From the NCBI GenBank assembly GCA_017506865.1, contig JAFCMP010000191.1, forward strand, positions 28,981-92,980: DNA of 64,000 nt, given 5' to 3'. The position numbers were made by a program, and so were the translations under genes. Below are positions 1 through 64,000 of this stretch, one piece after another. Source of the stretch: Tribonema minus. Its lineage: Eukaryota; Sar; Xanthophyceae; Tribonematales; Tribonemataceae. The notes beneath the pieces are model-generated. The model saw only the letters and a list, made by a program, of their open reading frames with translations. It was not told where the DNA came from and searched no databases. Position 1 is the stretch's first letter; each line of letters begins with the position of its first letter.

Positions 1-31
1 CGTCAAACTGCTGCAGCATCTCTTCCGTCAG
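1..31 (-). CDS. BAH gene exon start, runs off the left edge
   Basis: Acceptor GCCGCAG followed by LTEEMLQQFD in phase 0. Roughly nine duplicates of this acceptor plus exon start lie upstream in the intron, which is why the copy at the window edge is taken as the real exon. Confidence 0.55.
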   Translation of the reverse strand, partial: MTEEMLQQFD

Positions 32-3000: not shown

Positions 3001-6000
3001 AGGGCAGCTGGCAGCGCCGCACGCCCCTCAAGGCCCGGACCGCACGCGCCGCTGACCGCTGCCGCGGCGCCGAGGCGCAGCATCCCGACGTACGTTAGGC
3101 TTAAGACATTATGATACGCAGTTATTTAATGGGTCAACTTTACAAAAACAGCATCGTTGAAATGCGGACACAGGGAGGTACATGAAACTTCAGCGGCGAT
3201 TGCTCCAGCCCTTGCGGCGGCGTGCGCGCGCGACCCGCCGCTGCCGCAGTGCTCAGCACGGGGCAGGAGTCGCGCGCGCATTAAGTGGCGACGACGAAGA
3301 GGGGCGGACAGCAAGGCCTCGCCAAAGCCTTTGTGCGGGCCACCGGCACGGCTGCATTTCGCGCAGGCCCCTGCCAGATGACGTCCGTGGGCCGCTGTCA
3401 CAGCCGCGCTTCACACACAGGCTGTGCGGCGCTGCCGTGAGACCCGGGCGCGCGGTGCATGTGTCGCGCTGCTCTGCTGCGCGCTGCGCACACGGGCGTG
3501 CGCGGCACGCGCAGCTGGTATTTATTATACTATTAAGAAGGAAAAATATATATACAGGTACCTCCAACTTCATTTCTGTGACCCCAATGACCATCTGTAA
3601 TTACATGACGTCCTTACAAAGTCACAGAGTAAACCTGTCCTGTTCTCAAATATGGACCTATAGACAATAGTCCTTGTAAGATGCTAATTCTTCATGAATC
3701 GTGCTCCGTCATCTGACCAGCGCTGCGTGCGGCCGCTGCTGCCAGAAGGAGAAAACGGCAGCGCCATCGCGCGCGCACCTGCAGCATGCACGCCGGCGGG
3801 ACGATGCGCGCGGCCGCCACCGCCGCCGCTGCGTGCGACGCCGGCGGCAGCCCCGCCTGCGGCACCGCGCGCAGCACGTACGACTTCTTGTCGACGTCCC
3901 ACATGAGCTCCGCGTCCAGGACGACGGCGGCGGCGGCGCGCGCGCGCGCGCGGCGCCGGCGCGCGCCATGGCTGCTGCTGCTGCTGCCGCTGGCGCCGCA
4001 GCTCCTGAGCGCCGCCTGCGCCAAAGTGGATGGCGCGGCGTACATGCGAATGGTGAATGGTGATGCTCAGCTTGCTTGGACTACGAGTTGAGGTTATCAC
4101 ATGGAAGGCATGCGTGCAGGATGCGTGCTGCACCGGAACAGGTGTTGTCAAGTTTGACGGCGGCGCCACTTGCGCGTACTGCAGCCGCCACTGCTGCTGC
4201 TGCCGCCGCCATTGCTGCTGCCAGATGCCGCCCCCGCAACCGCAGTGCCTGCGGGGCAGCAGCGCGGTTGCCCCGCCGCCGCTGCAGCCGCCACTGCTGC
4301 TGCTGCCGCCTCCACTGCTGCTGCCAGATGCCGCTCCGCAACCGCAGTGCCTGCGGGGCAGCAGCGCGGTTTCCCCGCCGCCGATGCTGCTGCCAAACGC
4401 AGACCCCGCAGCTGCAGCGCCCGCGCGGCAGCATCGCAGCCGCTGCGGCAGCAGCAAGGCCGGGAATGACGAGAGACCTGACATCCACTCACCCTGCCGC
4501 TAGCCCTAGCGCGCACGCACCTGACTCGTGCCCGCCCCGCTGCTGATCCACCAGCTTGCTGCCGCTCAGCGCGCGCTGCAGCAGACGGTTGTGCTCATTC
4601 ATCACGGCGCCGCTCATCACGCGCTCCACGGGCGGCGCCGGCACCGGCGGCGGCGCGCCCGCCACGCCCGCTGCCGCCGCCGCCGCCGCCGCAGCAGCAG
4701 CAGCGGCGCGGTCATCTCGCCGATCCTGGTCCATCGGCGCCAGGCCGGACGCGTCACCAGTCGCAGCAGCGGCAGCGGCAGCGGCGGCGCCTTCATCGGC
4801 TGCGGGTGGCTGCTGAGCAGCGCCACTTGATGCAGCCGCCGCCGCAGCGGCATCCGCGCTGCTGCCGCCGCCGCCGCTGCCGCCGTTGGCGGTCGGGCGC
4901 CCTGCGGCGTGCGCCGCTGCCTGCTTGCCATCCGCGTCCGCGGCGCCTACAGCAGCAGCAGCGGCGGCGGCGGCAGCGCTGGCAGCGGCGCGCCTGGGCG
5001 ACCTGGCGGCGCCGACGGAACCAGCTGCGCCGGCGGCGGCGGCGCCCGCGTGGGCCCCGGCGCCGCCGCCACCGCCGATGTGGCGCTCGTGCAGAGCCAG
5101 CGGTAGCTGCGGGCCGCGCGGGCGTGCGCGGCGTTGGCGGCGCGCTGCCGCCGCTGCCGTTCAGCTGCGCCGCATCTACGGCTTCGGCTGCGGCGCCGTC
5201 GGCGGCGCTGCTGCCGCCGCCGCGCTCTCCTTCGGCGGGCACCACGGTAACGAGCCCCACGCCGCGCCCTGGCACCAGGCGGTACCAGTAGCTGCGCGTC
5301 GGGGGCGGCATCGGGGGGGGGGGGGGGGGGGGGGGGGGGGGTACGGGTAGGTATGGGTGAGCCCTGCTGAGCGCTGCTGCACATTAGATTGCGCGGGGGG
5401 GTGGGGCGCAGCGGTTGAGTTGGGAGCATGTGCGGCATAGACGCTTAAAGTGAGGGCGCGCTCTGGCATTGGCACACGCGCGCACTGAAGGCACCTCAGC
5501 GGTGTCGCGTCGAGTCCAGACCGCTGACTGGTGGACGTGGCGCACCACAACTTCAGCTAGCACTGAATCATTGAGGTGACTCACCGCTCATTTCGCAGCC
5601 CGCTCTGGCACCGGTGCAAACGCGCCCTAAAGGCGGCCCAGCGGCTTCGCGTCGGGGGTCGAGGCTCGTGACAGCTTCAACTAGATCTTAACTCTTGAAG
5701 TGACTCACCGCCCCTTTTGCAGCCGCTCTGGCGCTGGTACACACCCCGGAGGCGCCCCAGCAGCGTCGCGTCCGGGTCATCACCGTAACCTCAACTTTAA
5801 CTTGAACTAAACTCTTGAAGTGACTCACCGCCCGTTCCGCAGCCCAGGCACTGGTACATGTGCCCTGGAGGCGCCCCAGCGGCATCGCGTCAGGCCTATG
5901 ACATGGTAACTTCAACTTGAACTAAGTACTTGAAGTGACTCACCGCCCATTCCGCAGCCCGCTCTGGCGCTGGTAGACGCCCTGCAGGCGCCCCAGTGGC

Positions 6001-9000
6001 GTCGCGTCAGGGTCGAGGCCCATGACTTTGGATCAACTTCAACTTAAACTAAACACTTGAAGTGACTCACCGCCCATTCCGCAGCCCGCTCTGGCGCTGG
6101 TACACGCCCTGCAGGCGCCCCAGCGGCGTCGCGTCGGGGTCGAGGCCCATGACGTAGCGGAAGTGGCAGTCCGGGCGCCACTTCATGGCAAACTCCATGA
6201 GGCTCTCCTTGGGCGGCCGCAGGTCGTTACCGTCCTCGAATTCAATCTGCAAGGCCGCGCGCGCGCGGGGGGGGGGGGGGGGGGGGGGGGGAGGGGGGGG
6301 GAAGGGGGGGCATACAGGTTTACTAAGGTACCTTGCAAACTCTTCAACCAGGTCACACCTCCGGTCATCAATGCCGTTGTCAACCAGGTGACACCTACAG
6401 TCATCATTACCGTCCTCGAATTCAATCTGCGAGGCCACGCGGGGGTCCAGAGAAAGAAAGCATGCATCGTTGCAAGGCACCTAGCAGGGAAACGTCATGC
6501 TACCAAACACCAAATGCCATCACTGTCATCATGTGTCAGGGGGGGCCGGGGGGGGGGGTGGGGGGTGGGGCGGGAAGGGGGGGGGTGTTCAGTGTACTTC
6601 TTTGGAAATGTTCAACCAGGTCAGAATGGAATGTGAGATATTCATGTACGGGAGCGATAGTAGGGGTGACTGGACAGCGCAATCAGGGGCGGGGCGTTGA
6701 CGAGGTAGGGCGGTGGAGGGGGGGGGGTACAGAGTCCTCGACTTCAATCTGCACAGCCACGTGCAAGCGGGGGGGGGGGGGGAGCGAAGGGGGGGCATAC
6801 AGTTGACACCCTCGTCAACTTTTCGACCAGGTCGCACCTGCAATCATCAGTGCCATGTGTGCGTGCTCCACTGGCGCGTGATGGCTCGTCCCGTGCTGCA
6901 ATGCCTGAACACTGCTGCCTTCGTAGACCCACCCTCGCTTCGAAAATCACACGTGCACGCACCTCCATGAGGCGGTGCTTGGTGCCGTTGCGCGCACGCC
7001 GCCGACGCGTTTCGCACGTAGGGTACTGATGAAGCTTCACAAACCCAGGTTTGAACCTAACCTCACACCGTACTGTACCCGCAGTATGCGCCTGGTCTTA
7101 CCTCCATGAGGCAGTGCTCGATGCCGCTGTGCGTGCTCCACTGGTGCGTGTCGCTCGTGGGGTACAGCAGCATCTGAGCACTGCTTCTTTTCAGAACCCA
7201 GGGGCTGAAACCTACCCTCCCTTTGAATGCGCATGTACATGCCTCCATCAGCCAGTGCGCGATGCCGTTACGCGCGCTGCACCGGCGCGCGTCCCTCGCT
7301 GGGTGCCACAGCATCTGAGCACTGCTGCCTTTGACAGCCTTCACTCCAGTTCACATGTACCTGCGCACCTCCATCAGCCGGTGCGCAGAGCCGCTGCGCG
7401 TGCTCCACTGGCGCGTGTCGCCCGTCGGGTGCCTTGGTATCTACCCCCCAAACCGATACGGTACCTACCCGTACGCGCCCGCTCTCACCTCCATCAGCCG
7501 GTGCTCGATGCCGTTGTGCGTGCTCCACTAGTGCGTGTTGCTCGTGCGCTACAGCAGCATCTGAGCCTTGCTGTTTTCAAGCACCCAGAGGCTGAAACCT
7601 ACCCTCCTCTCAACACCGCAACCTACGCACCTCCATCAGCCGGTGCTCGATGCCGTTGTGCGTGCTCCACTGGTGCGTGTCGCTCGTGGGGTACAGCAGC
7701 GTCGGCGCGCCGCCGCCGCCGCCGCCGCCCGCCGCCTCCTCCTCCCACCAGTGCTTGCCGCGCACACGCACCTCGTCCTCTACGCCGAGGGCGATGCCCG
7801 CGCCGCCGCCGCCGCCGCCGCCGCGCTGCGCTTTCCGCCCCCGTGGAGCGCTGCTGCCGCCGCCCCCCTCATCCCCCGAGTCCACCCCAGCCTCGGATTC
7901 TGCGTCGCCGCCGCCGCCGCCGCCCGCCGCTGCTGCCGCGGCCGCGTCGGGCTGATTGGCGCGCGCGGAGGAAGCGCCGCCGCCGCCGCCGTTGCCGCTG
8001 TTTTTGGCGGCGGAGCCTGCGGTGCGGAGAGGCGCGCAAAGGGGGGGGTGAGGTTGTCAGCAGAGGTGCATTTGACTACGCTAGCCTACCAGCTAGTACT
8101 CCGCTGCAGCTACGCGCCCGCACTTGCTGGACGGTACCAGTCAAATAGTGATGCATACGCTGCTTCCTCCCCCGGGACTCTTCGCAAAAAATGCACATAC
8201 CAGGGCCTGTTCTCCATCTGACGCGCATCGGGGCTGCTCACGCGCGTGCTGCGCAAAGCAGCAGCGCTCAGCCGCGCGCGCGCGCGGCACGCAGCGATCC
8301 TCGCGCGCACAAGCCGCGAGACTCGTCTACGCCATGATCGCAGCGCGCGCGCGTGCGTCGCGTCGCGGTCCGGCGCTCGCTCTGCCGCCACACAGTGCGT
8401 CACAGCGCACGCGTGGTGTACAGCTGGGCAAGCATGGCGCGCCTGCGTGGCCGCGGTAGCAGCCGCGGCGGCCGCGCAGCCAGATTGCAAACAGCACCCC
8501 TCTGACAACTGTGACTGTCCGTTACACAGCAGTTTGCTGCGGCGAGGCTCAGCCGCCCCCGCCGTGTGCCCCCAGCAGCAGTGCTCAACGCATGATCGTG
8601 GTCGCGGCGCCGCGCTGGCAGCGCACACGTCGCCCCACGCAATGCACGCCAAGTCGTTCATTTCTGGATTCGACGAGACTGCGAGCGCTGCCGCATGCGC
8701 GCACGCGCACGCCGGCGCAGGCGCTCCCCGCGCAACGCGTCTCTCTGCTGTTGCGCGCGGCAAGGTTCGGGCGCGAACGTCGTTTGCGGCCGTGGTCGCA
8801 GCGCTCGGCGAGATACGCCATACGGCGACGCCGCACGCGCCGCGATGCGCATGGCGCCGCATGGAGTGCAGACTTTGTGCTACGACGCGGCGTGCAAGGT
8901 GCCGAGCGCTGCTGCGCGTGTGCGCCCCCGCGCCATCCCCCGTTCTAGGGTTAGGCAACTCTAGACCTGAGGTTAGTTAACCCTAGACATAGGGTTAGGA

Positions 9001-12000
9001 AATTCTAGACCTAGGGTTGGGTCAGGTAGCCCTAGACCTAGGGTCATGACCCTAAACCTAAATTTATATAACTCTAGACCTAACTGCAGCACCAGCGTAG
9101 CCCACTGACCCTACTATACGCAAGCAGTAGACCTGCGCGCGCTCTCACCGCAGTTCGGCGCCGCAAACGCGGCAAAGCTCAGGCGGCCGGCCGGTGTTAT
9201 CACGCCTGCAGTCACAGTGCTCGACGCGTCGTCATCCTCCCGCACGAAACTCGCAGCCCACTACCCCTACAGTAAGCAAGCAGTAGACCTGCGCGCGCTC
9301 TCACCGTTGTTCGGCGCTGCGAACGCGGCGAAACCCAGGCGGCCGCTCGGTGTTGTCGCGCCCGCGGTCACAGTGCTCGACACGTCGTCGTCCTCCCTCA
9401 CGGAGCTCGGCGCGGGCGACGACGCGCGCCGCGACGACGAGCCGCCGCCGCCGTTGTCCACGGAGCCGCGCTTGCGCTTCTTGATGTGGAACACCTGGGG
9501 GAGGGGGGGGATCGAGGGGGGGGGGCGTCATGGTCGTTCTCGTGATCAGAAAGTTCAGGATTTCGTTGACTATGCGGTGCTGGAGTGGCGCATTATTTCC
9601 ATGCGCCTCGACCGGCTATCTCCGCGCTTTGTCGTGTGGAACAACTGAGGGTGGGGACACTCGGGGGGGGGGGGGGGGGCTGCGGTCCTCATTGACAGAG
9701 CTGCCTCGTTGCGGCCTTTGTGCAGCAAAAATCAAGATACTGCGGCGATTTGTGGCTCGTCACAGTTGAGCTGTACACTGTGCGGTCGCAGCCTGCACCG
9801 CCGCACATGCCGTAGCGCAGCGTACGCAGCGGCAGGAGTCCTGAAGTTCACACTGCGGATCACCATCTACAGGCTGAGCACTGAGGCCGCGCAGCTGCCC
9901 CGCCCGTGCGCGCGCACGCACCTTGACGCGCTTGACGATGTTGTCCACGGAGTGCGCGTAGGTGTCCTTGTACACACCGTCGATGCGCATGTAGTGCTGC
10001 AGCAGCAGCACGAAGTGCTCCTTCCTGATGCCAGCGCGCTCGCGCCAGTCGATGCGCACCTGCGGCAGCGAGCAGCGGTGCGCAGCAACGAGCAGCGGTG
10101 AGCAGCAGCAAGCAACAGCGAGCAGCAGTGAGCAGCAGTGAGCAGCAGCGAGCAGCAGCGAGTGGCAGCGAGCAGCAGTGAGCAGCGGCGAGCAGCAGCG
10201 AGCAGCAGCGAGCAGCAGCGAGCAGCAGTGAGCAGCAGTGCGCAGCAGTGAGCAGCGGCGGCGATGGCCATTGTGAAGTTGGGCTGACGTTGACAGTGAG
10301 GGCGCGGTGTGAGCAGCAGTGAGCGGCGGCAGCAGCGGCGGCCAAGATGAGGTTGGACTGACTTGACAAGTGAGGTGGGGGGTGTTCAGGATGAAGTTGA
10401 ACTTTCCTACTTGGACTTGACCAACTTGAACTGAGGCTGATGTTCAAGACGAGCTGAGCCATGTCGCGCTCAGGCGCGCTGCCATGCGCAATGAAGTCGA
10501 GGAGCGTGTGCCATCGCGTATGCTGATTTACGCAGATGTCGTGACAGCAGCGGCCACGACGTTTGATGCGCGCCGGCAGCAGAGAGCAGCGGCACCGGTG
10601 CTGAGATGCGTCGTGCTGCAACCACGTGAGATGAGTCAACGAGATGTGGTGATTACCGTAGCAGCTGCAACGACTCTACGCGAGGTGCCTGAGCCCGACA
10701 GCTAGTTGTGGTTCCAAGGCCACGTTCATACAGTCCGCAAATCGAAGGCATGCTGAAATATCCTTCTGGCTGGTGAGGAATTAGGTGCAAAGGCCACAGC
10801 TGAAGTTGAAGTCTAAAAAAATGTTGAAGCTTGTTGGAAGTTCACCAACCAATGCTTGTAATTACTGCAAGCAATGGTGTGTCATCTACCTCCTGGCCGT
10901 TGATTTATACCAGCAGCAATCATGCTCTCCAAAGTCTGACCCAGTAAAGCTGACAAAATTCCACATTTCAAGTTTCAGCTTGAACCTGAAAGGCTTCAAC
11001 TTGAACTTGAAACGATGAATGTGTTCTGCGTCTGATAACGGGCGGCGGCAAAGCAAAAAATTATGTGCACACGTATCACCGTAGGTACATAACAATTGTC
11101 TGTCAGCATCTGATGCGACATGACATTGCAACAGGCCTGACGGACCGAGTAGACTAGTATATCATAAACTGCAAGTGCACGCCGACGACGTTGTTTGGAA
11201 GTGACCGTCGATGCGTATCGGGACAGTCAACACGAGGTATACCTGCTATCTCTGGTCGCAAGCGTGACAGGGCAGAGATTGTGTGCAGGAACAATCCAGT
11301 AGGGTTCATCAGTGTCGCAAGAAGTGTGCCAGACCAATTGCAAAAGGGGTTCATCGCAGCTTCTTGAATGATCATCGCCTAACACATCGGATTTCAAATC
11401 ACATACGTCACGAAGTCATAAGTAGCACGACGACTCTTCCCCTCGGCTCTTAGCGTCGACGCGCATGGGCTCACATGGGCTCAGCATAGCATTAAGCCGG
11501 AGGCTGGCCCACGGACATCAGGCCGGAGGCGAGCACCACACGCCGAGTACAGACCATGGCAGAAAACTGGGCATGTCAGCCGCACTGATTGACCTGCCCT
11601 TTGATGGCTGAACGAAAAACAGCTCGTGTGCCGTGCAGTGCAGAGGAAACTGGTTTCTGTGGTTGCGTTCTTGATGTCAGTTGATGACACACACGCAGTG
11701 GAGTGCACTCAGTCCGCCCCCATCAAATACAGCAGCACTGCAATGCCTGCCGCTCGTGCCAGTGATCCAGGTGACGTCTACTAACTTCAAGACCCGGTTG
11801 AAGTTTCAGGTTCGCAGTTGACCAACGGGAATCCACATTAGCGAAAAAAAAATTTCACAATGACTGCGCATACGAAAGTCGGCTTTAAAAAGCAAAGGTG
11901 GCTAGCCCAAACCATGTGGGGGGGGGTTGGTCGCCATCATATACAGTACGCAATAGCAATCATTCTGAAATAAGTTTCATTCGATGACACAGTTCGTTCC

Positions 12001-14752: not shown

Positions 14753-14786
<34 letters not shown>

Positions 14787-24300: not shown

Positions 24301-24800
24301 CGGCTACCACTACTTTGCACCGTGGCAGCGGGAAGCGGCCAGGAGTTCGCAGTGCGCAAGACGGCAGTGGCGTTGCGGAAGAGGCGCACATGCATGCCGC
24401 ATGCGACAACGTACACGTCACCGACCACTCCACAACACAGCTTCCGCGCTGTGCGCGAGACGGCGATGGCGGCGCGACAGTGGGGCGTGCGCACGCGGCG
24501 GTGCATCACATGTGCCAATGTTAACAAAACCGGTTGTCATCACCTCACAGAATGATTGCCATTGCGCGCGCGCCCGCGCGCAATGCACGCGACAATCTTA
24601 CATACTGTACGCACTGACAATGATTTCGCAGCGCGGCTCGCGCACATGACACACGCAGAGTCCATCTGTGCTGCTCTGGGCCCCTTTTTGTTTGCCGGCA
24701 TGTGAGCTGCCGCCAGCTGTGCACTGCCGCCCGTCATGTGCAGCGGTGGCCGCGGCGCGCATGCACGGTCGCCGATGACGCGCAAGACGGCTACGACGTG
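15397..24800. other. Gene-poor, lower-GC stretch between BAH gene and AGM1
   Basis: No exon supported by splice sites and phase was found on either strand. It contains scattered TTACAGTAACTGTAACAG-type palindromes (17280-20260), GACTCAG/AGTCAGAC motifs around 17850-18220, a C run at 23161-23195, and ACTTCAA/TTGAAGT motifs. It presumably contains the missing 5' exons and promoter of the BAH gene, and possibly a terminal AGM1 exon. The open frames here are short and uncharacteristic. Confidence 0.55.
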
Positions 24801-24824
24801 TGGCAGAATTCGGCTGGCAGCACG

Positions 24825-47537: not shown

Positions 47538-47568
<31 letters not shown>

Positions 47569-49265: not shown

Positions 49266-49296
<31 letters not shown>

Positions 49297-52200
49297 CGCA
49301 GGAAATGCTCAGCGCGGCACCAGTGACGGACAGGAGCGGCGAGACGGTGGGGAGCCTCGTGCTGGCGGCGCTCGCGGCGTGCCAGTGCGGCGGCATCCTG
49401 CTCGACAAGCTGAGCCCGTACGCGTTTGAGGGCAGCGACGGCGTGCCGCTGACGCTGCACGGCTGCATCGGCGCGGGGGACATTGCCGCCGTGGAGGTGA
49501 GCGCGAAGAGGGATGTGGGGGGGGTCATGTGGTTGTGCAGTAGGGTTAGGCTTAGGGTTAGGGTTATAATTAGGGTTAGGCAGCGCCATCAAGTGTAGAG
49601 AGCGAGGCGGCGATGGCGTGCCACTCACGCTGCACGGCTGCATCGGCGCGGGGGACATTGCCGCCGTGGAGGTGAGGGGGGGGGGGGGGGGTATGTACGA
49701 TTGTGTGGTAGGTTTAGGGTTAGGGCTAGGGTTTGGTCTAGGGGTATAAATAGGATTAGGGTTAGGGTTAGATTAGCATTGGGGTTAGGGTTAGTTGTGG
49801 CAGCGCCCATCAAGTGTAGAAAGCGAGGCGGCGACGGGGTGCCGCTCACGCTGCACGGCTGCATCGGCGCGGGGGACATCGCCGCTGTGGAGGTGCGCTG
49901 CCGTGCGCGTGTGCAAATTTGAAGTGTATGAAAGCGCAGCGACGGCTTGCCGCTCACGCTGCACGGTTGCATTGGCGCGGGGGACATTGCCGCTGCGGAG
50001 GTGAGCGCGGATGGGGGGGGGGGGGGGGGTGTATGGTGGTACGGTAGGGGTTAGGGTTAGGGTGAGGGTCAAAACCAGTGTTTTAAAGTGTCGGATTAGG
50101 GTTGGTTTTAGGGTTAGGTAATGATTGGGGTTAGATTTGGGTCAGAATTAGGTATGGCAGCGGGGCAGCGACGGGATGGCACTCACATCGTGCGGCTGCT
50201 TCGGCGCGGGGGACATTGCCGTTGTGGAGGTGCGTTGCCGTGCATGTGTGGCGGATGTGTCATACTTCAAATCTGAAGTGTATTTAAGGGCAGCACCGGC
50301 GTGCCGCTCACGCTGCAGGGCTGCGTCAACGTGGTGGACATTGCCGTAGTGGAGGTGTGTTGGCCGCGCGCGTGAGCGGATGCGGGGTACTTCAAACTTG
50401 AAGTATAGAACATATGGTTGTGGGGTATGCTACTGTACGTAGGCATGCACCGGCTGCAGATTATGATTTGACAGTAAGCTGAACGGAGGAGGTCAACGGG
50501 GTGCTCACGCTGCACGGCTGCGTTGGCATGTTGGACATTGCCGACGTGGAGGTGAGCGCGGAAGGGAGGGGGGTAGTATGGCTGTGGGGTATGGTATTGC
50601 AGCAGACGTGAAGCGCGTATTGGAATGGGGCGCAGCGGCAGGGTGCTGCTCACGCTGCATGTGGCTTCGTCGGCGCGCCACATTGTTCTGGAGGTAACAT
50701 ACGGTTGTGGGGTACAATATGGCGCGCACCGAGTGTGCATCAGAGGCGCGGGGGAGGGAGGGGGGGCAGAGGTCGCGGGGGGGGGGGGGGCGGATGGGGT
50801 TTGGGTTTAGTTAGGGTTAGGGCTAGGATTATTGTTAGGGTTAGAGTTAGGGGCAGGGTTGCTTGATCTTCTCTCAGCTTGAGGCGCCTGCAGCCGGCCT
50901 CGCACGGCCTGCTCCCCCCTCTCTGCGCGCTCCCCGAGTTGTCAACCCAGGACTCGACAACAACGCAGCGCACATGGCTAACTTCATGTGTGACGCCCCT
51001 GCCCCCGCCTGGCGCCGGCATCGCGTCTGACAAGAAGACGGAGTGGGAGACGTTTGTGTTGAAAACACAGCGCACATGACGAACTTCACGTCTAACTTCA
51101 TGTGTGACGCCCCCGCCCCGGCGCCAGGTCGGCGGCATCGTGTTCAACAACAAGACAGAGTGGGAGACATTCGTGTGCGGTCCCGTCATCGAGCAGCTCG
51201 CCGTGGCGCAGGAGCTCAGCGGCAAGAGCGAGTTCTGCCTCAGCGCTCAGGTGAGGTGTACTTCAATTATGAACTTTAGCAGTGTACTTCAATTATGAAC
51301 TTTCAGCAGCGCGCCGTAGCACAGTAGCTCAGCGGCAAGAGCGAGTTCTGCCTCAGCGGTCAGGTGTACTTCAATTATGATTTTAAGCAGTGTACTTCAA
51401 TTGTGAACTTAAAGCAGCGCGCCGTGGCCCAGCTCAGCGGCAAGAGCGAGTTCTGCCTCAGCACTCAGGTGAGGCGACTTCAATTGTGAACTTTGTAGGC
51501 GCAGTGCTTCAAGTATAATCAGCATCAATACTGCGTGGAGTGCGTGCGTACTTTGAGGTGTTGCTTGGCGGCAAGAGCGAGTTCTGTCACAGCGCTCAGG
51601 TAAGGTGTACTTCAATTATAATTCTTCAATTCGCAGTACACCAGAGAATCAGTAGGTTTACATTAATAGTCACCTCACAAAAGCTCCTGTCTGACGCACA
51701 GCAACGGCACATGGTCGCTGCGCAAGTCGTGAACGTTGCTGTACAGTATCTCAAACATCGGTATCAGTACTTCATTCGGTACGTGTGTACTTTAATGTAT
51801 AGCAGTAGCGAGTTCTGCCTCTGACGACGTGCGCAGACCAGTGGCGTCACGACTGTCTCCACTATGCCAATTGGTGGCAGGCGGAGCAGCACAAACGCTC
51901 AGGGTTAGGGTAAGGTTAGCGTTAAGTTTAGGGTTACAATTGCATGGACCACAGACAGCGGCATGCTGTCGTCGCGCTTTTATGGCAGCTGGCAGATTTA
52001 CCACCTGGGGGAAACTCAGAATCCCCTCGAAAAACCCCGCCCCCCCTCTCCGGCCGCCTGACCCTACCCGCTCAGAGTCGACAAGTGATAAAGCGGGTGA
52101 TAGGTTTTTGTGCTAGCCTACCAGCCTCTGGTACTCGATGGCAGCTGTGTGCCTAGTCTTGCTGGTCAGAGAAGTCAGGCAAGATGTGATACATGCACTC

Positions 52201-55200: not shown

Positions 55201-58200
55201 TGGAGATGAGCGACGCGGCCTTGGCGGTGGATCCTGCGTAGACTCGCACTGCTGTCATGTTCAATGGCGTTCAAAGGCAGTAGCGCTCATGGACAACTAT
55301 ATTCAAAGGGTCCCAACAGAGGCCGGAAGGTCAGTGTGTTCGTATGTCGGGTTTCACCCTGTGCAGCGCGCTAGTCTGCACCACGTCCTCAGAGCTTGGG
55401 CACCGACGCTGCAGCAACCCGGCATAGCGGTGATGCAACACAGCCCCGCATTCGCGCTCCGTGTGTGTACGTCATGTTACGCTGCGCCAATTCCCGTGCC
55501 AATCATGTAGGTGATGGTACTGAGCAGTGCTGCACGTATACCTGCCGTACCCGGTGGTCACCGCTGCATGCCAAGACCAGAGGCCGTGTCCATTCTCAAG
55601 CCAGTTGACCCGTGGCCGTGCCTCTGTCGCAAGCTCTCATCTAGGCAGCGGCAGAATGTTGGCATCTGGGCGAACGAAGCCTCTCTCGGACACTCTCCGA
55701 CCAACGGGCGCGGTGCTGCTCTGCAACTTCAACTTGAGGTAGCTGATGCGCACTCAATACCGGCGCTGCTGCGAAGGCGAGTGTCTTCAGTTGCTGCTGT
55801 GCAACTTCATCTTGAAGTATCTGATCTCGAGCACTGCTGCACTTGTTTTCTGGCGCCGCTGCGCAGGCGAGCGTGGGCTTTGTGAAGTTCGACATCATGG
55901 ACATGAACCGCAAGACCTGCATGGACCTGCGAGCGAAGGCGCACCGCATCTCGACCGTCATCATGAGCGCGTTCAGGGAGGTGCAGGTCGCGGGGGGGCA
56001 CGTCAACAAGGTGAGTCGCCGCTTGAAGTAGGGTTGATCATGTGAGTTTGTGCCAAGGCGCACCGCACCTTGACCATAACTGGCAAGGGTTCCGGCTAGT
56101 CGCTGGTCTTACGTTGTGATTTTATTCAAGTTGAGCAGACATTCAAGTTGAGCAGACACCTTACAGTGCCGGCTAAGTGACTGGTGTTGCAATGTTTACA
56201 AGAGCCTGGCCTCGTGTGGTCTAGCGCAATGATAACGGCTACAACACGCTCGCTCGCCCCCTCTTTCTGTGCCCCTTGCTGATTCCTTGTTTTTGACACT
56301 AATCTTGTCCCAAAGTTGCTGAAAATTCTGACATCACGAGCGCTTTCAGATATGGGTCACCAGCTACAACAACAACAACCTGCACGCCATCCGCGGCTCA
56401 CAAGCCATTTTTGCAATGTACTGTGGTGTACTGTTCGCATTGGCTGAACCGTTCTTTCACTGCACGTCGTCGAAAAAGGACCATCGTCTTGCTCCACCTT
56501 GTTGAACTGTACCGTGGTGCACCGTATGTACTGGACTGGACCGTTCCTTCACTGCAGGCAATAGAAAAGGGGTGTGTGCCCTCCTGTACTGTACACTGCA
56601 CTCCAATGAACTGTACTGTACAATGCTATACTGCGCTGCACCGCCAGGTGGTCATGGACGAGAAGGGCCTCGTCCTCCTGTACTCCACTGCACTGCAACG
56701 AACTGTACTGTACAATGCTATATTGCGCTGCACCGCCAGGTGGTCATGGACGAGAAGGGCCTCATCCTCCTGTACCTACTGCACAACCCTGTACTGTACT
56801 GTACACTGCACAATACCAAACTGTACTGTATTACAACTGTACTGCGCTGTACCGCCAGGTGATCATGGACGAGAAGGGCCTTGTCCTGCTGTACGCCTTT
56901 GGCATGCCCGGCTACAGCTACGAGAACAACAACCTGCACGCGATTCGCGTCGCGCTGGAGATCAAGGAGACGGCCAAGCGCGACTTCAGGCACCGCGTCG
57001 GCGTCGGCATCGCGAGCGGCCAGATCTGCTGCGGCCTCATCGGCAAGGCAGACTTTAGGTGCGAATCGCTGTTGGCATTTGTCAGGGGATCAGGGGCTCG
57101 GATGGGGGTTTACTGCCTCATTGGTAAGGCAGACTCTCCGGTGCGTATCGCTGCCAGCGTTTCCTGGAAGGTAGGATATTTGAGGGGGCCAGGATGGAGC
57201 TGCGTGCTTGGGGCGACGATCATGCTCCGGAGGAGTTGTGGCTGTTCAATCGATAGATGTAGCCTCGTCAGGAAGGCAGACTTCAAGTGCGGATTGCTGC
57301 CGGCGTTCCTCGGGAGCTCAGGGGACGGCTTAGGGCTCAGCTTGGGGATTGCGGCCTCGTTGACAGGGCAGACATTGGGTGCACCTGCATGCCCTGATGG
57401 ACTCTTGCTGAGCACGCGAAAGTGCGCGCTGGCAGCAGACATATCCGACCTAGCGGCGCGGTTTTCGCCATGCTCACAACACCTACGTGCGCATGCGTGA
57501 CCCATACCCATACATGCGTGCCTTGCTGTACTCCGCAAGCAGGTGCGAGTACGCGCTCGCAGGCGACATGGTGGCACGGAATTGCCATGTTCATACATAG
57601 GTATACATACGTGCCCATGCAGGACATGACTTGCCTTATACATACGTGCTGCCCTCTTGACCTCTGCTGAGCAGGTGCGAGTACGCGCTGGCGGGCGACA
57701 TGGTCAACCTGGCGGCGCGGCTTGCGGCGCGCGCCGACACGGAGCGCGAGGGCTGCGTTTTATGCGATCAGTACACCATTGAGGTGCGTCACCCACGATT
57801 GAAGTAGACGCACACTCCTTGACGATATGCGAGGGCTGCGTCCTCTGCGACCAGTACACCATGGAGGTGCGTCACCCGTACTTGAAGTCGATGCACACTC
57901 CTTGAAGCTAGCTCACAGCGTGCGAGGGCTGCTCTGAAAATGTCATGCCTGTGAAACCCTCCTTTCTGACACCTTACGCATAAAAATGAGAGCGTGACTA
58001 AAGCTGCAGCACAGTGTGACGAGTACACCATCGAGGTGCGTCACTTGCGCTTGAAGTAAATGTGCACATCTGAAGTAGGTGAGTGGCTCCGTAGACTAGT
58101 TCGCAATGTGCGAGGGCTGTGTCCTGTGCGACCAGTACACTATCGAGGTGCGTCACCCGCGCTTGAAGTAGATGCACACTTGTTGAAGAAGGTGAGTGGC

Positions 58201-61200: not shown

Positions 61201-64000
61201 ACCTTTGCGGTGGGGTGCCCTGTCGTGTAATTGTGTGCTGTCGCCCCATCGTGCCGCCGATCACCCCGTCTTGCCCTAACACCAACGTTGACAACACCTG
61301 CCTCGCGCTGTTGCTGCCACTGCTGCCGCTGCGCCGCAGGATGTCCTTGCGCTCATCGTGCCGCCAAACACCTCATCTTGCCCTAACGCCAATGTTGACA
61401 ACACCTGCCGCTGCGGCTGCGGCTGCCGCTGCCGCTGCCGCCGCTGCCGCAGGGCTCGCCCTAAAGCCAATGTCGATAACACCTGCCGCTCACGCTGCCG
61501 CTGCCGCTGCCGCTGCTGCCGCTGCCGTTGTCGCTGCCGCTGCGGCGCAGGGCTTCCTGTCGCTCATCGTGCCGCCGAGCGCGACGGGCCGCACGGACGG
61601 CGAGGTGCTGCGCAGCGCGCTGCCGCCGGAGGCCTCGCGCCTCGTCCCTGCGCTGCGCTACTTTGACGTGCGGCTGAAGGTGCGCGCAACGCTGTCTGTT
61701 TGCGACGCTACGCAGCCGCGAGGTTTGGGGTAGGGTTCAATATGCTGCGCTACTTTGGCGTGCGTCTGAACGCGCGTAGCGCTGTCCGTCGACGATGCTG
61801 CGCAGGTGCTGGGGCTAGGGTTGGGCCTAGAAACCGAGCGGAGCCACGCGACGCCAGTTTTCTTGACCGCAGGAGTCTGGGGAAGCCGCACACACCTGAC
61901 TGTACTCTGCTGCAGCTGTGTGCCCATCTTTGCTGGGGTGTTCCACGCAATGAGCGCTGCGCACACGCCGTCGCCCGTTCCGCACTCCTCTCGCAAAAAC
62001 CTCACACCCTCTTCTTCAGGGCCCGCTGCCTCCCCCTTTCGCCCGCGGCGGCCTGACCCTAATCCAAACCCTGTCCCTAAACCTAACCCTAACCCTAAAC
62101 CTTAAGCGTAACCATCACCCTAACCTCAACGCGCGCAGGAGCTCGAGGGCGCCGCCGCCCCCGTCGTGCTTAACCTCTAACCCTACCCTAACCCTAATCC
62201 CAACCCTAATTCCAACGCGCGCAGGAGTTCGAGGGCGCCGCCGCCCCCGTCGTGCGAAACCTCTAAGCCTAGCCTAACCCGAACCCTGACCCCAACCTCA
62301 ACCCCAACGCGCGCAAATTTGAGGGCGCCGCCGCCCCCGTCGTGCGCCACAGCCGCGACGGCGTCGGCACTGTCGCGCACAGCCACATGGGGTCCGTCAT
62401 GATGCTGCGGCAGCGCTCCGACCTGTCGCTCCACCTTGCACTAGCCATAACACTAACCCCAAGCCTTACCCTAACGCTAACCCTATCCCTAACGCAGGAG
62501 TTCGAGGGCGCCCCCCCCGTCGTGCGTAATTCCCGCGACGGCCTCGGCACCGTCGCGCACAGCCACATGGGGTCCGTGATGATGCTGCGGCAGCGCTCCG
62601 ACCTGTCTGTCAGCGGCGGCTCGACGCGCCGCCGCTCGTCCGGCGGCCACGCCACGCAGAAGGTCGACTACCGCTTCCGCCGCTTCAACGCCGTGCAGGC
62701 GGCGCCGGCGCGGCGGCACGCGCCGCGCGGCGGCGCCGGCGGCACGTACGCCGGCGTTACCAATGTGAGCAGTTTGCGTTTTGGGGTTCCGTTTTCTCGC
62801 TTTGGGTTAGGGTTAAGGTTAGGGTTAGGGTTAGGGGTAGGGTTAGGTCGACTACCGCTTCCGCCGCTTCAACGCTGTGCAGGCGGCGCCGGCGTGGCGG
62901 CATGCGCCGCGCGGCGGCGGTGCAGGCGCCACGTACACTGGCGCCACCACTGTAAGCAGATCGCGCTTTGGAGTTCCCTATTCTCGCTTAGAGTTAGGGC
63001 TAGGGGTAGGGTCAGGTCAACTACCGCTTCCGCCGCTTCAACGCGGTGCAGGCGGCGCCGCCGCGGCGGCACGCGCCGCGCGGCGGCGGCGGCGCCGGCA
63101 GCACGTCCGCCGGCGCCACCAATGTGAGCGTGCGTTGGCTCGTTTGCCGAGCGCTGCTGCTAGTGCGTGCAGCCCACGGCTTGCCCTGCCGCCGTCGTGT
63201 TCGCTGCATAATCGTTGAGAATGCGCTTGCGGCGGCGCGTATGCCGGCACCACCAATGTGAGCAGATGGCGCATCGGGGATTCCGTATCTTGCGCGTCGC
63301 GGGCGCGCACTCACCTGCACTACTGTTGTTTTAGCAGCTTCGGGAGCGCGCTGACTCGTGTGCTGAGCGCTGCTGCCAGTGCGTGCAGTCCGCGGCTCGC
63401 GTCGCCGCCGTCGTGTTCACCGCGCAACTGTTGAGGTTGTTTCGCGGTGAGGCCCAGGGCGGTTGTGCCGCTCTAACCCTGACCCTAACCCTAACCCTAA
63501 CCCTAATCCTAACCCAAAGACAGCAGCCGTTGCGCTTGCGCTGGTGCGACAGCAGCCATTTCACTCATACGCGCGACCGCAACTGCCGTGACAGCAGCCG
63601 TCTCACTCACGCGCGCAACTGCTGTCTCCGCCCGAAACCCACTGTTTGCAGATTGGCGGCAGTTACATCTCCCTCGAGGTCGCCGTCACCCTGGTCAAGC
63701 GGATGCAGGGCTCGATCAAGACGGTGCCGCCGCGTGAGTTTAACCCTGACCCTAACTCTAACCCTAAGTTTAACGTACCTCTAACCCTGGCCCCTAACCC
63801 TGATACACTACGCGACTGCTTCAAAGTGTTTGCGACGTGGAAGCTGGGGCTTATGTCACGCGCTTGTCAGTACGAAGGCGTGCCAATGCTGCAAAGCATC
63901 TGGCCTTGTGGCAAACGGACGCTTCCATCAGTGCGTTCTCTTTCTTGCTGCCCTATACGCGGCAGTCGTGCCCACATCGTCGCTGCTGTCGATGCGTTCC
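42652..64000 (+). CDS. Soluble (ADCY10-type) adenylyl cyclase, 19 exons, 3' end beyond window
   Basis: Gene-level entry. A class III nucleotidyl cyclase predicted to make cAMP from ATP. Joined in phase, the exons give about 1015 residues. C1 (about 230-415) has both metal-binding aspartates, Asp241 in DVSGFTACMERF and Asp291 in CFAGDALMVV. C2 (about 525-690) reads KFDIMDMNRK, HVNKVIMDEKG, LLYAFGMPGY, RVGVGIASGQICCGLIG and YALAGDMVNLAARL; NLAAR supplies the transition-state Asn and Arg. The C1-C2 pair in one chain without membrane segments, followed by an AAA/NTPase module (VGREMEL, Walker A GEAGMGKST with Lys805), is the soluble adenylyl cyclase architecture. In characterised members this enzyme is bicarbonate- and calcium-regulated; that is family knowledge, not seen here. 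The usual helical repeat tail would lie right of the window. The first ATG at 42652 is in frame with the exon, but an upstream exon is possible. Confidence 0.94.
43039..44025 (+). other. Cyclase intron 1
   Basis: Holds a G-rich run (43427-43467) and, near 43800-43980, weak copies of the CGCCGCAG acceptor and the start of exon 2. Confidence 0.6.
44026..44199 (+). CDS. Cyclase exon 2
   Basis: 58 codons, acceptor CGCAG, donor GTCAGT, phase 0. LVPRVGSGGELAEDGKPLQP, VLQALFGQTAPAGLRPGD, GIFQRTRRGNTTMPARRSGK. Precedes the C1 domain; not a known motif. Confidence 0.82.
44265..45210 (+). repeat. Six to seven copies of cyclase exon 2 end with donor
   Basis: Copies near 44268, 44490, 44645, 44832, 44995 and 45130 repeat GDGIFQRTRRGNTTMPARRS and GK followed by GTTAGT, GTCAGC, GTCAGT, GTCGGC, GTCATT and GTCAGC. 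A seventh near 45295 is decayed and lacks the donor. Confidence 0.95.
45211..46121 (+). other. Cyclase intron 2, distal part
   Basis: GC-rich, with further weak exon-2-like remnants near 45470-45550 and two C-rich blocks (45979-46015 and 46079-46105), the second directly before the exon 3 acceptor. Confidence 0.55.
46122..46281 (+). CDS. Cyclase exon 3, start of C1
   Basis: Phase 0 in, phase 1 out, donor GTGAGC. AYTVPLAYRHLESLCALLPA, RVVERLVAGGEGHDVPQFRK, TRFKCAVLFI. The last strand leads into the first catalytic aspartate in exon 4. Confidence 0.93.
46340..46740 (+). repeat. Four copies of cyclase exon 3 end with donor
   Basis: The unit is about 105 bp. Each repeats HDVPQFRKTRFKCAVL and an ATAGGTGAGCG-like junction with a GAAGTTGAAGT-type intron start. 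Confidence 0.95.
46741..47684 (+). other. Cyclase intron 3, middle
   Basis: No exon. Contains CCCTAACCCTAACCCTAACC at 47037-47060 followed at 47137-47180 by TTAGGG-like units in the opposite sense, a G run at 47409-47420 and a GCC run at 47520-47590. Confidence 0.6.
47685..47945 (+). repeat. Two copies of cyclase exon 4 acceptor and start
   Basis: Copies at 47690 and 47897 read GCAG followed by DVSGFTACMER with ACG TC/TG variants of the first codons. The spacing is about 170-200 bp and they run up to the real exon. Confidence 0.94.
47761..47820 (+). repeat. Dispersed repeat family B, short copy
   Basis: CGAATCAAAAGATCGTAGAG then CTCTAGGTGACAAGAGAT; it matches the first half of the copies at 59503 and 61046. 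Confidence 0.8.
48066..48262 (+). CDS. Cyclase exon 4, C1 catalytic core
   Basis: Phase 1 in, phase 0 out, donor GTGAGC. DVSGFTACMERFASHGPAG, IEKFWTIINGYFNELLSYIR, GTGGDVECFAGDALMVVYD. Carries both metal-binding aspartates of C1. Confidence 0.97.
48330..48725 (+). repeat. Three copies of cyclase exon 4 end with donor
   Basis: Copies near 48335, 48487 and 48670 repeat GGDVKSFAGDALMVVY-like sequence and AGGGCATCGCGCGGCGGCAG followed by GTGATA or GTGAGC. Confidence 0.95.
48780..49180 (+). repeat. Three copies of cyclase exon 5 acceptor and start
   Basis: Copies near 48790, 48943 and 49124 repeat GCAG plus EMLSAAP-like sequence; spacing about 170 bp. Confidence 0.92.
49302..49496 (+). CDS. Cyclase exon 5, C1
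   Basis: 65 codons, phase 0. EMLSAAPVTDRSGETVGSLV, LAALAACQCGGILLDKLSPY, LTLHGCIGAGDIAAVE. The LHGCIGAG strand corresponds to the IG-G segment of class III cyclases. Confidence 0.94.
49590..50700 (+). repeat. Seven copies of cyclase exon 5 end with donor
   Basis: Copies near 49597, 49826, 49937, 50163, 50285, 50495 and 50632 repeat GVPLTLHGCIGAGDIAAVE followed by GTGAGG, GTGCGC, GTGAGC, GTGCGT, GTGTGT, GTGAGC and GTAACA. TTAGGG-like tracts and G runs (49676-49690, 50014-50029) lie between units. Confidence 0.95.
50701..51127 (+). other. Cyclase intron 5, distal part
   Basis: G run at 50776-50790, TTAGGG-like tract at 50810-50855, then a copy of the exon 6 start near 51015-51060 (GIASDKKTEWETFV). 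Confidence 0.75.
51128..51250 (+). CDS. Cyclase exon 6, end of C1
   Basis: 41 codons, acceptor GCCAG, donor GTGAGG, phase 0. VGGIVFNNKTEWETFVCGPV, IEQLAVAQELSGKSEFCLSA, Q. Matches the WE-G-P--Q---A segment of sAC C1. Confidence 0.94.
51325..51835 (+). repeat. Four copies of cyclase exon 6 end
   Basis: Copies near 51327, 51425, 51560 and 51805 repeat LSGKSEFCLSAQ with a CAGGTGAGG-like junction (first three) and a GTACTTCAATTATGAAC intron start. Confidence 0.93.
51836..52654 (+). other. Cyclase intron 6, distal part
   Basis: Contains a family A dispersed repeat and a C-rich pyrimidine tract ending at 52654. No exon recognised. Confidence 0.6.
52112..52226 (+). repeat. Dispersed repeat family A, copy 3
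   Basis: GCTAGCCTACCAG, then GGCAGCTGTGTGCCTAGTCT and TGCTGGTCAGAGAAG; related to copies at 8080 and 25012. Confidence 0.82.
52655..52764 (+). CDS. Cyclase exon 7
   Basis: Phase 0 in, phase 2 out, donor GTGCGT. VVEMVCRWIPLQHPTHGLEE then DAMGCMVLTGLSNP. Linker between C1 and C2. Supported by copies of its end in the following intron. Confidence 0.8.
52875..53085 (+). repeat. Two copies of cyclase exon 7 end with donor
   Basis: Copies near 52896 and 53050 repeat MVLTGLSNPR and a CCAGGTGCG junction. Confidence 0.9.
53086..53612 (+). other. Cyclase intron 7, distal part
   Basis: No exon. A decayed copy of the exon 8 start region lies near 53525-53550 (TTTGTACCCATATGCAACAG). Confidence 0.55.
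53613..53739 (+). CDS. Cyclase exon 8
   Basis: Phase 2 in, phase 0 out. GMNGELLDPLPDFYSSQPRA, VSLFCRLNLREDQFAALDKA, VK. The donor is either GCAAGT after AAG (chosen, GC-AG) or GTAAAG six bases earlier; both keep phase. Confidence 0.85.
53855..54030 (+). repeat. Two copies of cyclase exon 8 end
   Basis: Copies near 53862 and 53975 repeat LREDQFAALDKAVK in degraded form, followed by GCGAGT in the first. Confidence 0.88.
54436..54543 (+). CDS. Cyclase exon 9
   Basis: 36 codons, phase 0, acceptor CCGCAG, donor GTGCGC. PYLPEDMVAKFQRVQQQQGE, SGAAATDNSWLGELRQ. This is the lead-in helix and ELR motif just before C2. A copy of its start lies at 54298-54340. Confidence 0.9.
54665..54915 (+). repeat. 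Two copies of cyclase exon 9 end
   Basis: Copies near 54680 and 54875 repeat AATDNPWLGALRQ; the first keeps GTGCGT. Confidence 0.88.
54916..55866 (+). other. Cyclase intron 9, distal part
   Basis: No exon. TTAGGG-like tract at 55060-55130. Repeated CGGCGCTGCTGCGAAGGCGA-like blocks near 55690-55866 look like copies of the exon 10 acceptor. Confidence 0.6.
55867..56010 (+). CDS. Cyclase exon 10, start of C2
   Basis: 48 codons, acceptor GCGCAG, donor GTGAGT, phase 0. ASVGFVKFDIMDMNRKTCMD, LRAKAHRISTVIMSAFREVQ, VAGGHVNK. The Lys after HVN is the probable purine-pocket lysine (inference from the family). Confidence 0.94.
56355..56780 (+). repeat. Copies of cyclase exon 11 interior and start
   Basis: At 56359-56397 is a copy of the middle of the exon (SYNNNNLHAIRG). 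At 56646 and 56738 are two copies of the CCAG acceptor and VVMDEKGLVLLY. CTGTACTGTAC-rich filler lies between them. Confidence 0.93.
56859..57058 (+). CDS. Cyclase exon 11, C2 core
   Basis: Phase 0 in, phase 2 out. VIMDEKGLVLLYAFGMPGYS, YENNNLHAIRVALEIKETAK, HRVGVGIASGQICCGLIGKA. FG-PG and GVGIASG are sAC C2 signatures. Confidence 0.97.
57059..57674 (+). other. Cyclase intron 11
   Basis: Contains copies of the exon 11 end (GLIGKADF near 57112 and 57265) and one copy of the exon 12 acceptor and start at 57537-57575. Confidence 0.85.
57675..57783 (+). CDS. Cyclase exon 12, C2 catalytic Asn/Arg
   Basis: Phase 2 in, phase 0 out, donor GTGCGT. CEYALAGDMVNLAARLAARA then DTEREGCVLCDQYTIE. NLAAR provides the catalytic Asn and Arg of class III cyclases. 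Confidence 0.97.
57825..58150 (+). repeat. Three to four copies of cyclase exon 12 end with donor
   Basis: Copies near 57828, 57920, 58012 and 58108 repeat EGCVLCDQYTIE and GAGGTGCGTCACCCG with a GCTTGAAGTAGATGCACACT intron start; the 57920 unit is mostly intron block. Confidence 0.95.
58358..58459 (+). CDS. Cyclase exon 13
   Basis: 34 codons after a C-rich tract, donor GTAAGT, phase 0. PLLARKKELMRGMGAVSFGR, MRPKGKSYDVEVYH. Connects C2 to the AAA module. Confidence 0.9.
58460..59408 (+). other. Cyclase intron 13
   Basis: TTAGGG-like units at 58600-58640, a G run at 59148-59168, and near 59210-59235 a copy of the acceptor context GCTCGCTATGGCCTCTGCAG that also precedes exon 14. Confidence 0.7.
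59409..59459 (+). CDS. Cyclase exon 14, 17-codon exon
   Basis: VSRTRQRTMLLLDITGE, acceptor CTGCAG, donor GTGAGT, phase 0. A 51-nt exon is unusually short but fits phase on both sides. Confidence 0.72.
59503..59633 (+). repeat. Dispersed repeat family B, full copy 1
   Basis: From GAATGAATCACAAGATCG to CAAACAGTGCCGCCGTATCC; aligned along about 125 bp with the copy at 61046. Confidence 0.9.
59784..59847. repeat. Head-to-head telomere-like tract
   Basis: GGGTTAGGGTTAGGG joins directly to CTAACCCTTACCCTAACCC and further CCCTAA units, so the G-rich strand switches orientation inside one tract. Confidence 0.9.
60312..60562 (+). CDS. Cyclase exon 15, AAA module with Walker A
   Basis: Phase 0 in, phase 2 out, GC donor (AG followed by GCAAGG). 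Ser/Ala-rich linker, then CSFVSVVGREMELRAMVAAI and CCVLEGEAGMGKSTLLPLLR. GEAGMGKST is the P-loop; VGRE-EL precedes it as in AAA_16/STAND ATPases. Confidence 0.94.
60765..60830 (+). repeat. Copy of cyclase exon 16 acceptor and start
   Basis: CTGCAGGGACCGCATGGCCT and following sequence match the start of exon 16, about 130 bp upstream of it, together with the preceding GCTCAGCTTTC...TAACCCTGA block. Confidence 0.92.
60904..61033 (+). CDS. Cyclase exon 16
   Basis: Phase 2 in, phase 0 out, donor GTATGT. DRMAQRPKNPAEHSSWMPLH, VIEARADHLEQSTPYYVLTD, VVK. The TPYYV motif is typical of the ATPase module of sAC-type cyclases. Confidence 0.9.
61046..61172 (+). repeat. Dispersed repeat family B, full copy 2
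   Basis: ACGAATCAAAAGATCATTGA to CAAACAGTGCCACCATGTAT, in cyclase intron 16, 13 bp after the donor. Confidence 0.9.
61205..61465 (+). repeat. Copies of cyclase exon 17 acceptor and start
   Basis: Copies near 61245, 61335 and 61448 repeat LIVPPxT-like sequence or the GCAGGGCT junction, embedded in GCTGCC repeats. Confidence 0.8.
61551..61679 (+). CDS. Cyclase exon 17
   Basis: 43 codons, acceptor GCGCAG, donor GTGCGC, phase 0. GFLSLIVPPSATGRTDGEVL, RSALPPEASRLVPALRYFDV, RLK. Within the ATPase module; no motif assigned. A copy of the end lies at 61742-61775. Confidence 0.82.
61889..62010 (+). repeat. Dispersed repeat family A, diverged copy 4
   Basis: CTGCTGCAGCTGTGTGCCCA and TTGCTGGGGTG, then CTCTCGCAAAAACCTCACAC; related to the other three copies but lacks the GCTAGCCTACC start. 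Confidence 0.65.
62038..62300 (+). repeat. CCCTAA-rich interstitial tracts
   Basis: Degenerate CCCTAA units at 62055-62130, 62175-62215 and 62270-62310, alternating with copies of the exon 18 start. Confidence 0.85.
62135..62435 (+). repeat. Three copies of cyclase exon 18 acceptor and start
   Basis: Copies at 62138, 62219 and 62311 repeat GCAGGAGTTCGAGGGCGCC; the third extends about 125 bp (to SVMMLRQRSDLS) but has lost the CAG acceptor. Confidence 0.95.
62498..62764 (+). CDS. Cyclase exon 18
   Basis: 89 codons, acceptor CGCAG, donor GTGAGC, phase 0. EFEGAPPVVRNSRDGLGTVA, HSHMGSVMMLRQRSDLSVSG, then an Arg/Ser/Gly-rich stretch, KVDYRFRRFNAVQAAP and a Gly/Ala tail. Not a known part of ADCY10; probably a lineage insert. 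Confidence 0.82.
62845..63265 (+). repeat. Three copies of cyclase exon 18 end with donor
   Basis: Copies at 62848-62953, 63018-63124 and 63220-63260 repeat YRFRRFNAVQAAP to ATN and a GTAAGC or GTGAGC donor, with a GTTAGGG-rich intron start. Confidence 0.95.
63266..63651 (+). other. Cyclase intron 18, distal part
   Basis: CCCTAA tract at 63474-63515; GACAGCAGCC-type repeats near 63520-63605. No exon. Confidence 0.6.
63652..63733 (+). CDS. Cyclase exon 19 (last in window)
   Basis: Phase 0 in, phase 1 out, acceptor TTGCAG, donor GTGAGT. IGGSYISLEVAVTLVKRMQG, SIKTVPP. The coding sequence continues right of the window. Confidence 0.8.
63734..64000 (+). other. Start of cyclase intron 19
   Basis: Begins with CCCTAA-like units (63740-63805), then sequence with no exon up to the edge. 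Confidence 0.6.

What the first reader, a model, noticed from the sequence alone, without database searches (positions are those of the whole stretch)
1..64000. Introns of three unrelated genes are built from copies of their own exon edges
Almost every intron seen here carries tandem, degenerate copies of the neighbouring exon edge. Polarity is strict: after an exon come copies of its 3' end plus 5' splice site; before an exon come copies of the 3' splice site plus its 5' end. It holds for the BAH gene and AGM1 (minus) and the cyclase (plus). This implies a shared mechanism, such as repeated unequal duplication or repair synthesis centred on exon-intron junctions, that lengthens introns and leaves ladders of decoy splice sites. 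I know of no described system with this two-sided rule; that novelty claim is inference.
Basis: partly seen in the sequence, partly recalled or inferred. Interest (0 to 1): 0.95.

Follow-up and report, generated by a model that had tools for sequence, protein, structure and literature searches.

The report
Exon-edge copies filling algal introns
In the yellow-green alga Tribonema minus many introns have grown by repeated short tandem duplications that straddle the exon-intron border, leaving decaying copies of exon ends and splice sites; the same oddity was described in 2026 on small chicken chromosomes, so this looks like an independent and more strictly border-bound case.

Summary
The window comes from Tribonema minus. 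In AGM1, in seven chaperonin genes elsewhere and in 66 codon-model segments of 20 arbitrary 10-kb windows, same-strand local copies of exon 3' ends lie downstream and copies of exon 5' ends upstream. In the rest of the window 2 of 50 local hits break the rule, both at one ill-defined segment. In AGM1 each copy carries 17-78 bp of exon and the splice site, then intron. Exon-derived parts have diverged half as much as intron-derived parts (9.1% against 17.8%), as expected for neutral decay beside a constrained exon.

Polarity alone is trivial for direct tandem duplication. Not trivial: arrays lying wholly inside introns are rare (4, against 33 at edges), where random placement expects 19-25 of 34.

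The alga adds a distant lineage, many contigs, and a strong bias to exon edges. 'Almost every intron' is too strong: 24 of 41. Best account: small tandem duplications from break repair, amplified by unequal exchange, then neutral decay. Why borders are favoured is unsolved.

The parts
25168..41644 (-). AGM1 (phosphoacetylglucosamine mutase) gene; 13 exons used: E1 to about 41190, E2 40209-40147, E3 38851-38663, E4 about 37925-37776, E5 about 36208-36179, E6 35110-35005, E7 34457-34392, E8 33092-32926, E9 31775-31638, E10 about 28998-28931, E11 27810-27700, E12 26783-26703, E13 25315-25168
   Evidence: spliced alignment to P0002, P0003, P0006; P0001 is named putative phosphoacetylglucosamine mutase of Tribonema minus; no RNA evidence
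40492..41234 (-). array of E1 3'-edge copies (4)
38803..39025 (-). E3 5'-edge copy (1), upstream
38441..38710 (-). E3 3'-edge copies (2)
37267..37814 (-). E4 3'-edge copies (3)
35903..36208 (-). E5 3'-edge copy (1)
35073..35756 (-). E6 5'-edge copies (3 found by probe), unit about 122 bp, youngest array by identity
34249..34429 (-). E7 3'-edge copy (1)
33016..33466 (-). E8 5'-edge copies, upstream; weaker ones further upstream
32284..32973 (-). E8 3'-edge copies (4)
31718..32146 (-). E9 5'-edge copy (1)
30340..31710 (-). E9 3'-edge copies (7), the far ones decayed
28980..29490 (-). E10 5'-edge copy
27791..28400 (-). E11 5'-edge copy
27289..27722 (-). E11 3'-edge copies (3)
25804..26771 (-). 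E12 3'-part copies (3 by 3' probe, 4 by 5' probe)
25262..25715 (-). E13 5'-edge copies (2)
24753..25209 (-). E13 3'-edge copies (2)
13127..13536 (-). BAH gene: copies of the 3' end of the long exon (exon ORF 13453-15402, BAH domain)
9096..9409 (-). same strand as BAH gene: 3'-edge copy of segment 9291-9527
6957..7717 (-). same strand: 3'-edge copies of segment 7628-8002 (5)
5456..6153 (-). same strand: 3'-edge copies of segment 6082-6240 (5)
44116..45407 (+). 3'-edge copies of segment 44020-44202 (7)
47660..48113 (+). 5'-edge copies of exon starting near 48066 (2)
48185..48725 (+). 3'-edge copies of exon ending near 48267 (3)
48778..49338 (+). 5'-edge copies of exon starting near 49302
49425..50595 (+). 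3'-edge copies of exon ending near 49498 (6)
50978..51176 (+). 5'-edge copy of exon starting near 51096
51192..51623 (+). 3'-edge copies of exon ending near 51250 (3)
56580..56897 (+). 5'-edge copies of exon starting near 56862 (2)
62661..63132 (+). copies around segment 63013-63132; true exon uncertain, the only place with two upstream tail hits

Best explanation
The arrays are 'exon stuttering': recurrent small direct tandem duplications whose unit, about 150 bp at the edges measured, runs from some tens of bp inside an exon across the splice site into the intron. Shown: direct orientation, locality, junction inside the unit, mostly one exon breakpoint per edge, near-absence of intron-only arrays, 1:2 divergence of exon-derived and intron-derived parts. 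Inferred: (1) a founding duplication at an edge, probably by fill-in and end-joining of a staggered break; (2) further copies by unequal exchange within the array, since copies share the founding breakpoint; (3) copies are invisible to selection because the outer original splice site is still used, so they decay neutrally, while duplications wholly inside exons are removed by selection; (4) breaks or their survival are biased to exon edges, for a reason not yet known, perhaps linked to GC-rich exons.
For: Polarity and locality. Arbitrary windows: 28 of 60 arrays cross a strong coding edge against 9.8 (sd 2.7, maximum 19) in 1000 shifts; array coverage 23-26% within 300 bp of a coding edge, 5.6% beyond 1.5 kb, 3.9% in the three windows with no strong coding segment. 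41 introns of AGM1 and six chaperonin genes: 18 with an array at the 3' end of the upstream exon, 15 with one at the 5' end of the downstream exon (one array counted at both), 4 arrays inside the intron only. With exons masked, so that detection is fair: 12 + 10 + 1 edge-linked, 3 intron-only, of which two lie at offsets of E9 3'-edge copies. Random placement expects 18.6 to 24.9 intron-only of 34; 0 of 20000 simulations gave 3 or fewer. 41 AGM1 copies: exon part 1633/1796 identical, intron part 3715/4521, divergence ratio 1.96; intron part more diverged in 26 of 29 pairs. Same exon breakpoint within an edge, e.g. E8 3' 47,47,46,47; E11 3' 22,22,22; E6 5' 41,41,41. Edges with arrays have GC 0.685 against 0.645 (34 and 48 edges, p 0.011), introns 1068 against 530 bp median. 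Interstitial TTAGGGTT 0.63 per kb in arrays, 0.13 outside (15 and 23 hits; repeat copies inflate this). Known route: fill-in of 3' overhangs by CST-Pol alpha-primase then NHEJ gives small tandem duplications in mouse and human cells (PMC8355091, passages).
Against: No direct evidence for breaks, fill-in or unequal exchange here; microhomology at founding breakpoints was not measured. Some edges have differing breakpoints (E4 3' 38,17,17; E8 5' 37,78,35,30; E9 3' 72,72,61,72,55). GC does not explain all: gene L031 has exon GC 0.673 and no array at 10 edges, and window GC does not correlate significantly with array coverage (rho 0.35, p 0.13). TRF periods of 40 bp or more have median 110 (41 arrays), not 150. 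32 of 60 arrays in arbitrary windows could not be tied to a strong coding edge. Exons rest on homology and a codon model, not RNA.
Confidence: 0.72

Rival explanations
1. Tandem duplications fall at random everywhere; purifying selection removes those inside exons, and what is left at edges only looks like a rule. Border anchoring would then come from shorter ancestral introns or from undetected gene structure.
For: Polarity needs nothing more than direct tandem duplication. Some arrays occur far from strong coding edges (5.6% coverage beyond 1.5 kb, 32 of 60 arrays unassigned). In three AGM1 introns with arrays at both ends only 88-146 bp are array-free.
Against: Even with pre-expansion intron lengths (residual + 100 bp per edge array) the placement model expects 18.6 intron-only arrays of 34, against 3-4 found. 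Masking exons does not bring intron-only arrays out.
Confidence: 0.2
2. Selection at the RNA level: edge duplications are tolerated or favoured because the inner copy keeps a short splice-site pair (step-wise splicing, or backup sites), while intron-only lengthening is mildly harmful.
For: Copies keep donor dinucleotides in 21 of 23 and acceptor AG in 12 of 12 aligned cases.
Against: That retention is close to what the exon-part divergence alone gives; array-free introns reach about 1.1 kb, so length is not tightly limited; the exon parts of the copies decay at the neutral ratio.
Confidence: 0.1
3. Mobile intron-making elements (introners) or transposon insertions carrying repeats.
For: Short motifs ACTTCAA/TTGAAGT and TTAGGG are enriched in the window and in arrays.
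Against: The repeated units are copies of the neighbouring exon edge; of AGM1 edge probes only E10's gave hits elsewhere in the window, two weak ones 14 kb away. The motif is not at a fixed place at the copy joints.
Confidence: 0.03
4. Assembly or sequencing artefact.
For: No reads were available.
Against: Copies differ by about 9-18% with ordered arrays at many loci; collapsed or duplicated reads would be near identical.
Confidence: 0.02

Closest known systems
Exon stuttering / sequence stuttering on chicken dot chromosomes (Hron et al. 2026, PMC12954441; abstract, outline and passages seen)
   Same: Imperfect tandem copies of the lateral part of an exon with its splice donor or acceptor in the adjacent intron; local; exon part in chicken 20-187 bp, median 36 (here 17-78, median 43, AGM1); median 4 copies; link to GC-rich genes.
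   Different: Chicken: 190 of 236 such introns on one chromosome class, and only 3.4% of dot introns show exon copies, with purely intronic arrays expected to be much more numerous. Here: a stramenopile alga, 24 of 41 sampled introns with arrays, almost all at edges. Population length variation, central in chicken, could not be tested.
Small tandem duplications by CST-Pol alpha-primase fill-in at breaks with 3' overhangs (PMC8355091; passages)
   Same: Would give direct, local, small duplications.
   Different: Shown in mammalian cells with nickase-made breaks; no such evidence here.
Intron gain by tandem duplication (for example the potato RdRp case, PMC4974935; listing and abstract start only)
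   Same: Tandem duplication involving exon and splice site.
   Different: There a duplication makes a new intron; here existing introns are lengthened and the copies lie on the side of their own exon.
Introners (PMC9860276; listing and abstract start only)
   Same: Mass effect on introns.
   Different: No unit shared between genes was seen.

Membership tests
Exon stuttering (chicken) | imperfect tandem direct repeats, tens to hundreds of bp, within introns | tested here: met
Exon stuttering (chicken) | copies hold the lateral exon part with the adjacent donor or acceptor | tested here: met
Exon stuttering (chicken) | copies local, next to their own exon | tested here: met
Exon stuttering (chicken) | association with GC-rich coding sequence | tested here: inconclusive
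   edge GC 0.685 vs 0.645, p 0.011; window GC vs coverage p 0.13; L031 an exception
Exon stuttering (chicken) | purely intronic arrays also common | tested here: not met
   3 of 26 arrays with exons masked; this is a reported feature in chicken, not the definition of the exon type
Exon stuttering (chicken) | strong intron-length variation among individuals | not testable with these tools
   one assembly, no reads
Exon stuttering (chicken) | confined to one chromosome class | tested here: inconclusive
Introner | similar sequence inserted in many unrelated genes | tested here: not met
   AGM1 edge probes against the window only: hits elsewhere only for E10, two weak; genome-wide search not run
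Intron gain by tandem duplication | intron ends made of the other exon's sequence after duplication of an AGGT site (recalled) | tested here: not met
   copies lie beside their own exon with their own splice site

The most novel reading that the evidence does not exclude
Founding duplications are truly aimed at exon-intron borders: in this genome DNA breaks or their mutagenic repair occur preferentially at splice junctions of transcribed genes, so that introns grow outwards from their exons, and this is an ancient or recurrent eukaryotic process seen so far only in birds (and, by the authors' unpublished remark, gerbils).
Probability: 0.35. Interest if true: 0.87.

Novelty: new variant of a known kind. 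Interest (0 to 1): 0.68.

Why it matters
It would show that exon stuttering is not a bird peculiarity but a mode of intron growth that arose in distant eukaryotes, and it gives a compact genome in which the question of why duplications sit at exon borders can be tested. It also warns annotators: the copies keep splice sites and coding-like sequence, so automatic gene models can go wrong.

Tried and rejected
Motif as cause: ACTTCAA/TTGAAGT (112 against 4.6 expected for 7-mers) and interstitial TTAGGG are enriched, and more frequent in arrays, but the copy joints printed show no fixed motif; it is dropped as the trigger. Introner model, artefact and pure random placement: see rivals. Repeated rows of Pfam searches as a genome-wide test (HSP70, kinesin, kinase): too insensitive to 40-bp copies; I saw overlapping rows that fit tail copies for two kinesin genes (C246, C511) and did not score the rest. 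E. coli K-12 regions were fetched as homology probes and never used. Iterative masked alignment failed because self-alignment dominated; replaced by banded alignment. The codon model behind the coding segments was trained on 1528 codons of this window only. The spacing list and intron list were typed. Literature: 9 of 10 searches; none listed a report of exon-edge copies in Tribonema or another alga, in an open-licence library that does not hold all papers; only one paper held the stuttering terms.

Full report
What the window is. The window is positions 28981-92980 of contig C191 of a 158-Mb, 554-contig assembly. The best protein match to the assembled AGM1 is named putative phosphoacetylglucosamine mutase of Tribonema minus, from a contig of 92980 bases, so the source is that yellow-green alga (inference, strong).

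Is the pattern there? Yes. Local repeats are direct, not inverted. In AGM1, 27 of 27 junction-covering hits of 3' edges are downstream and 11 of 12 of 5' edges upstream, the odd one weak and 14 kb away; 5 of 25 edge probes have none. In seven chaperonin loci, 29 tail copies are downstream and 23 head copies upstream, none the other way, while mid-exon probes have copies in 4 of 24. In 20 arbitrary windows, 33 tail copies are downstream and 26 head copies upstream on the same strand, none the other way; mid probes gave one each way. There were also 18 local opposite-strand hits and 11 hits to the reversed sequence, which I take as low-complexity background (inference). In the rest of the window 48 of 50 local hits fit.

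What is trivial and what is not. Any direct tandem duplication that spans a junction leaves copies on that side of the exon, so polarity is no rule of its own, and absence of interior copies follows from selection on exons. But intron-only duplications should be as harmless as edge ones. Among 41 introns of AGM1 and six chaperonin genes, 24 have arrays: 18 at the upstream exon's end, 15 at the downstream exon's start (one array counted at both), and 4 intron-only. With exons masked, so that the conserved exon cannot help detection, 23 of 26 arrays are still edge-linked. Random placement expects 18.6 to 24.9 of 34, depending on the intron length assumed, and none of 20000 simulations reached 3 or fewer. 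In arbitrary windows 28 of 60 arrays cross a strong coding edge against 9.8 by shifting; the other 32 could not be assigned.

How the copies behave. The exon part of AGM1 copies is 17-78 bp, median 43, and is mostly the same for all copies of an edge, with exceptions at E4, E8 5', E9 and E12. Spacing at edges has a median of 149 bp (32 values); TRF, which sees other arrays too, gives a median period of 110 (41 arrays). Exon-derived parts differ from the exon by 9.1%, intron-derived parts from the first unit by 17.8%, a ratio of 1.96; copies differ among themselves by 14.3% in the exon part. This is what neutral copies beside a constrained exon should show, with some shared ancestry among copies. 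Splice dinucleotides are neither purged nor clearly guarded.

Mechanism. The simplest account is a founding small tandem duplication per edge, amplification by unequal exchange, neutral decay. A known route for the first step is fill-in of staggered breaks followed by end-joining (PMC8355091, passages); its link to telomere proteins would fit the excess of interstitial TTAGGG in arrays (0.63 against 0.13 per kb), but that is only suggestive, and copies inflate the count. Edges with arrays are somewhat richer in GC (0.685 against 0.645), in line with the GC link proposed for chicken, yet one GC-rich gene has none and window GC does not correlate significantly. Why borders are favoured is open.

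Comparison. Exon stuttering, described in chicken dot chromosomes in 2026 (PMC12954441; abstract, outline and passages), has the same anatomy, with an exon part of 20-187 bp, median 36. The alga differs in lineage, in the share of introns affected in the sample, and in the scarcity of intron-only arrays. I found no report of it in algae in nine searches of an open-licence library.

Limits.

Noticed in passing
whole window, e.g. 29093-29118, 48275-48297, 50390-50398: ACTTCAA/TTGAAGT is about 24 times more frequent than expected (112 against 4.6) and often forms short palindromes; also common in arbitrary windows, in arrays and outside.
   Followed up: partly
38534-38583, 47036-47064, 55057-55127, 59803-59846, 62052-62125, 63473-63515: Interstitial telomere-like TTAGGG tracts in noncoding DNA, enriched in arrays in the arbitrary windows.
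   Followed up: partly
13537-24752: No local direct repeats found over 11 kb of lower GC content beside heavily repetitive genes; nature of this stretch unknown.
   Followed up: no
G000 contig C235 (L031, L032): Two chaperonin genes on one contig had no edge arrays at the 10 and 4 edges tested by self-BLAST, which may hint at regional differences; L031 showed two weak probe hits.
   Followed up: no
   Followed up: no
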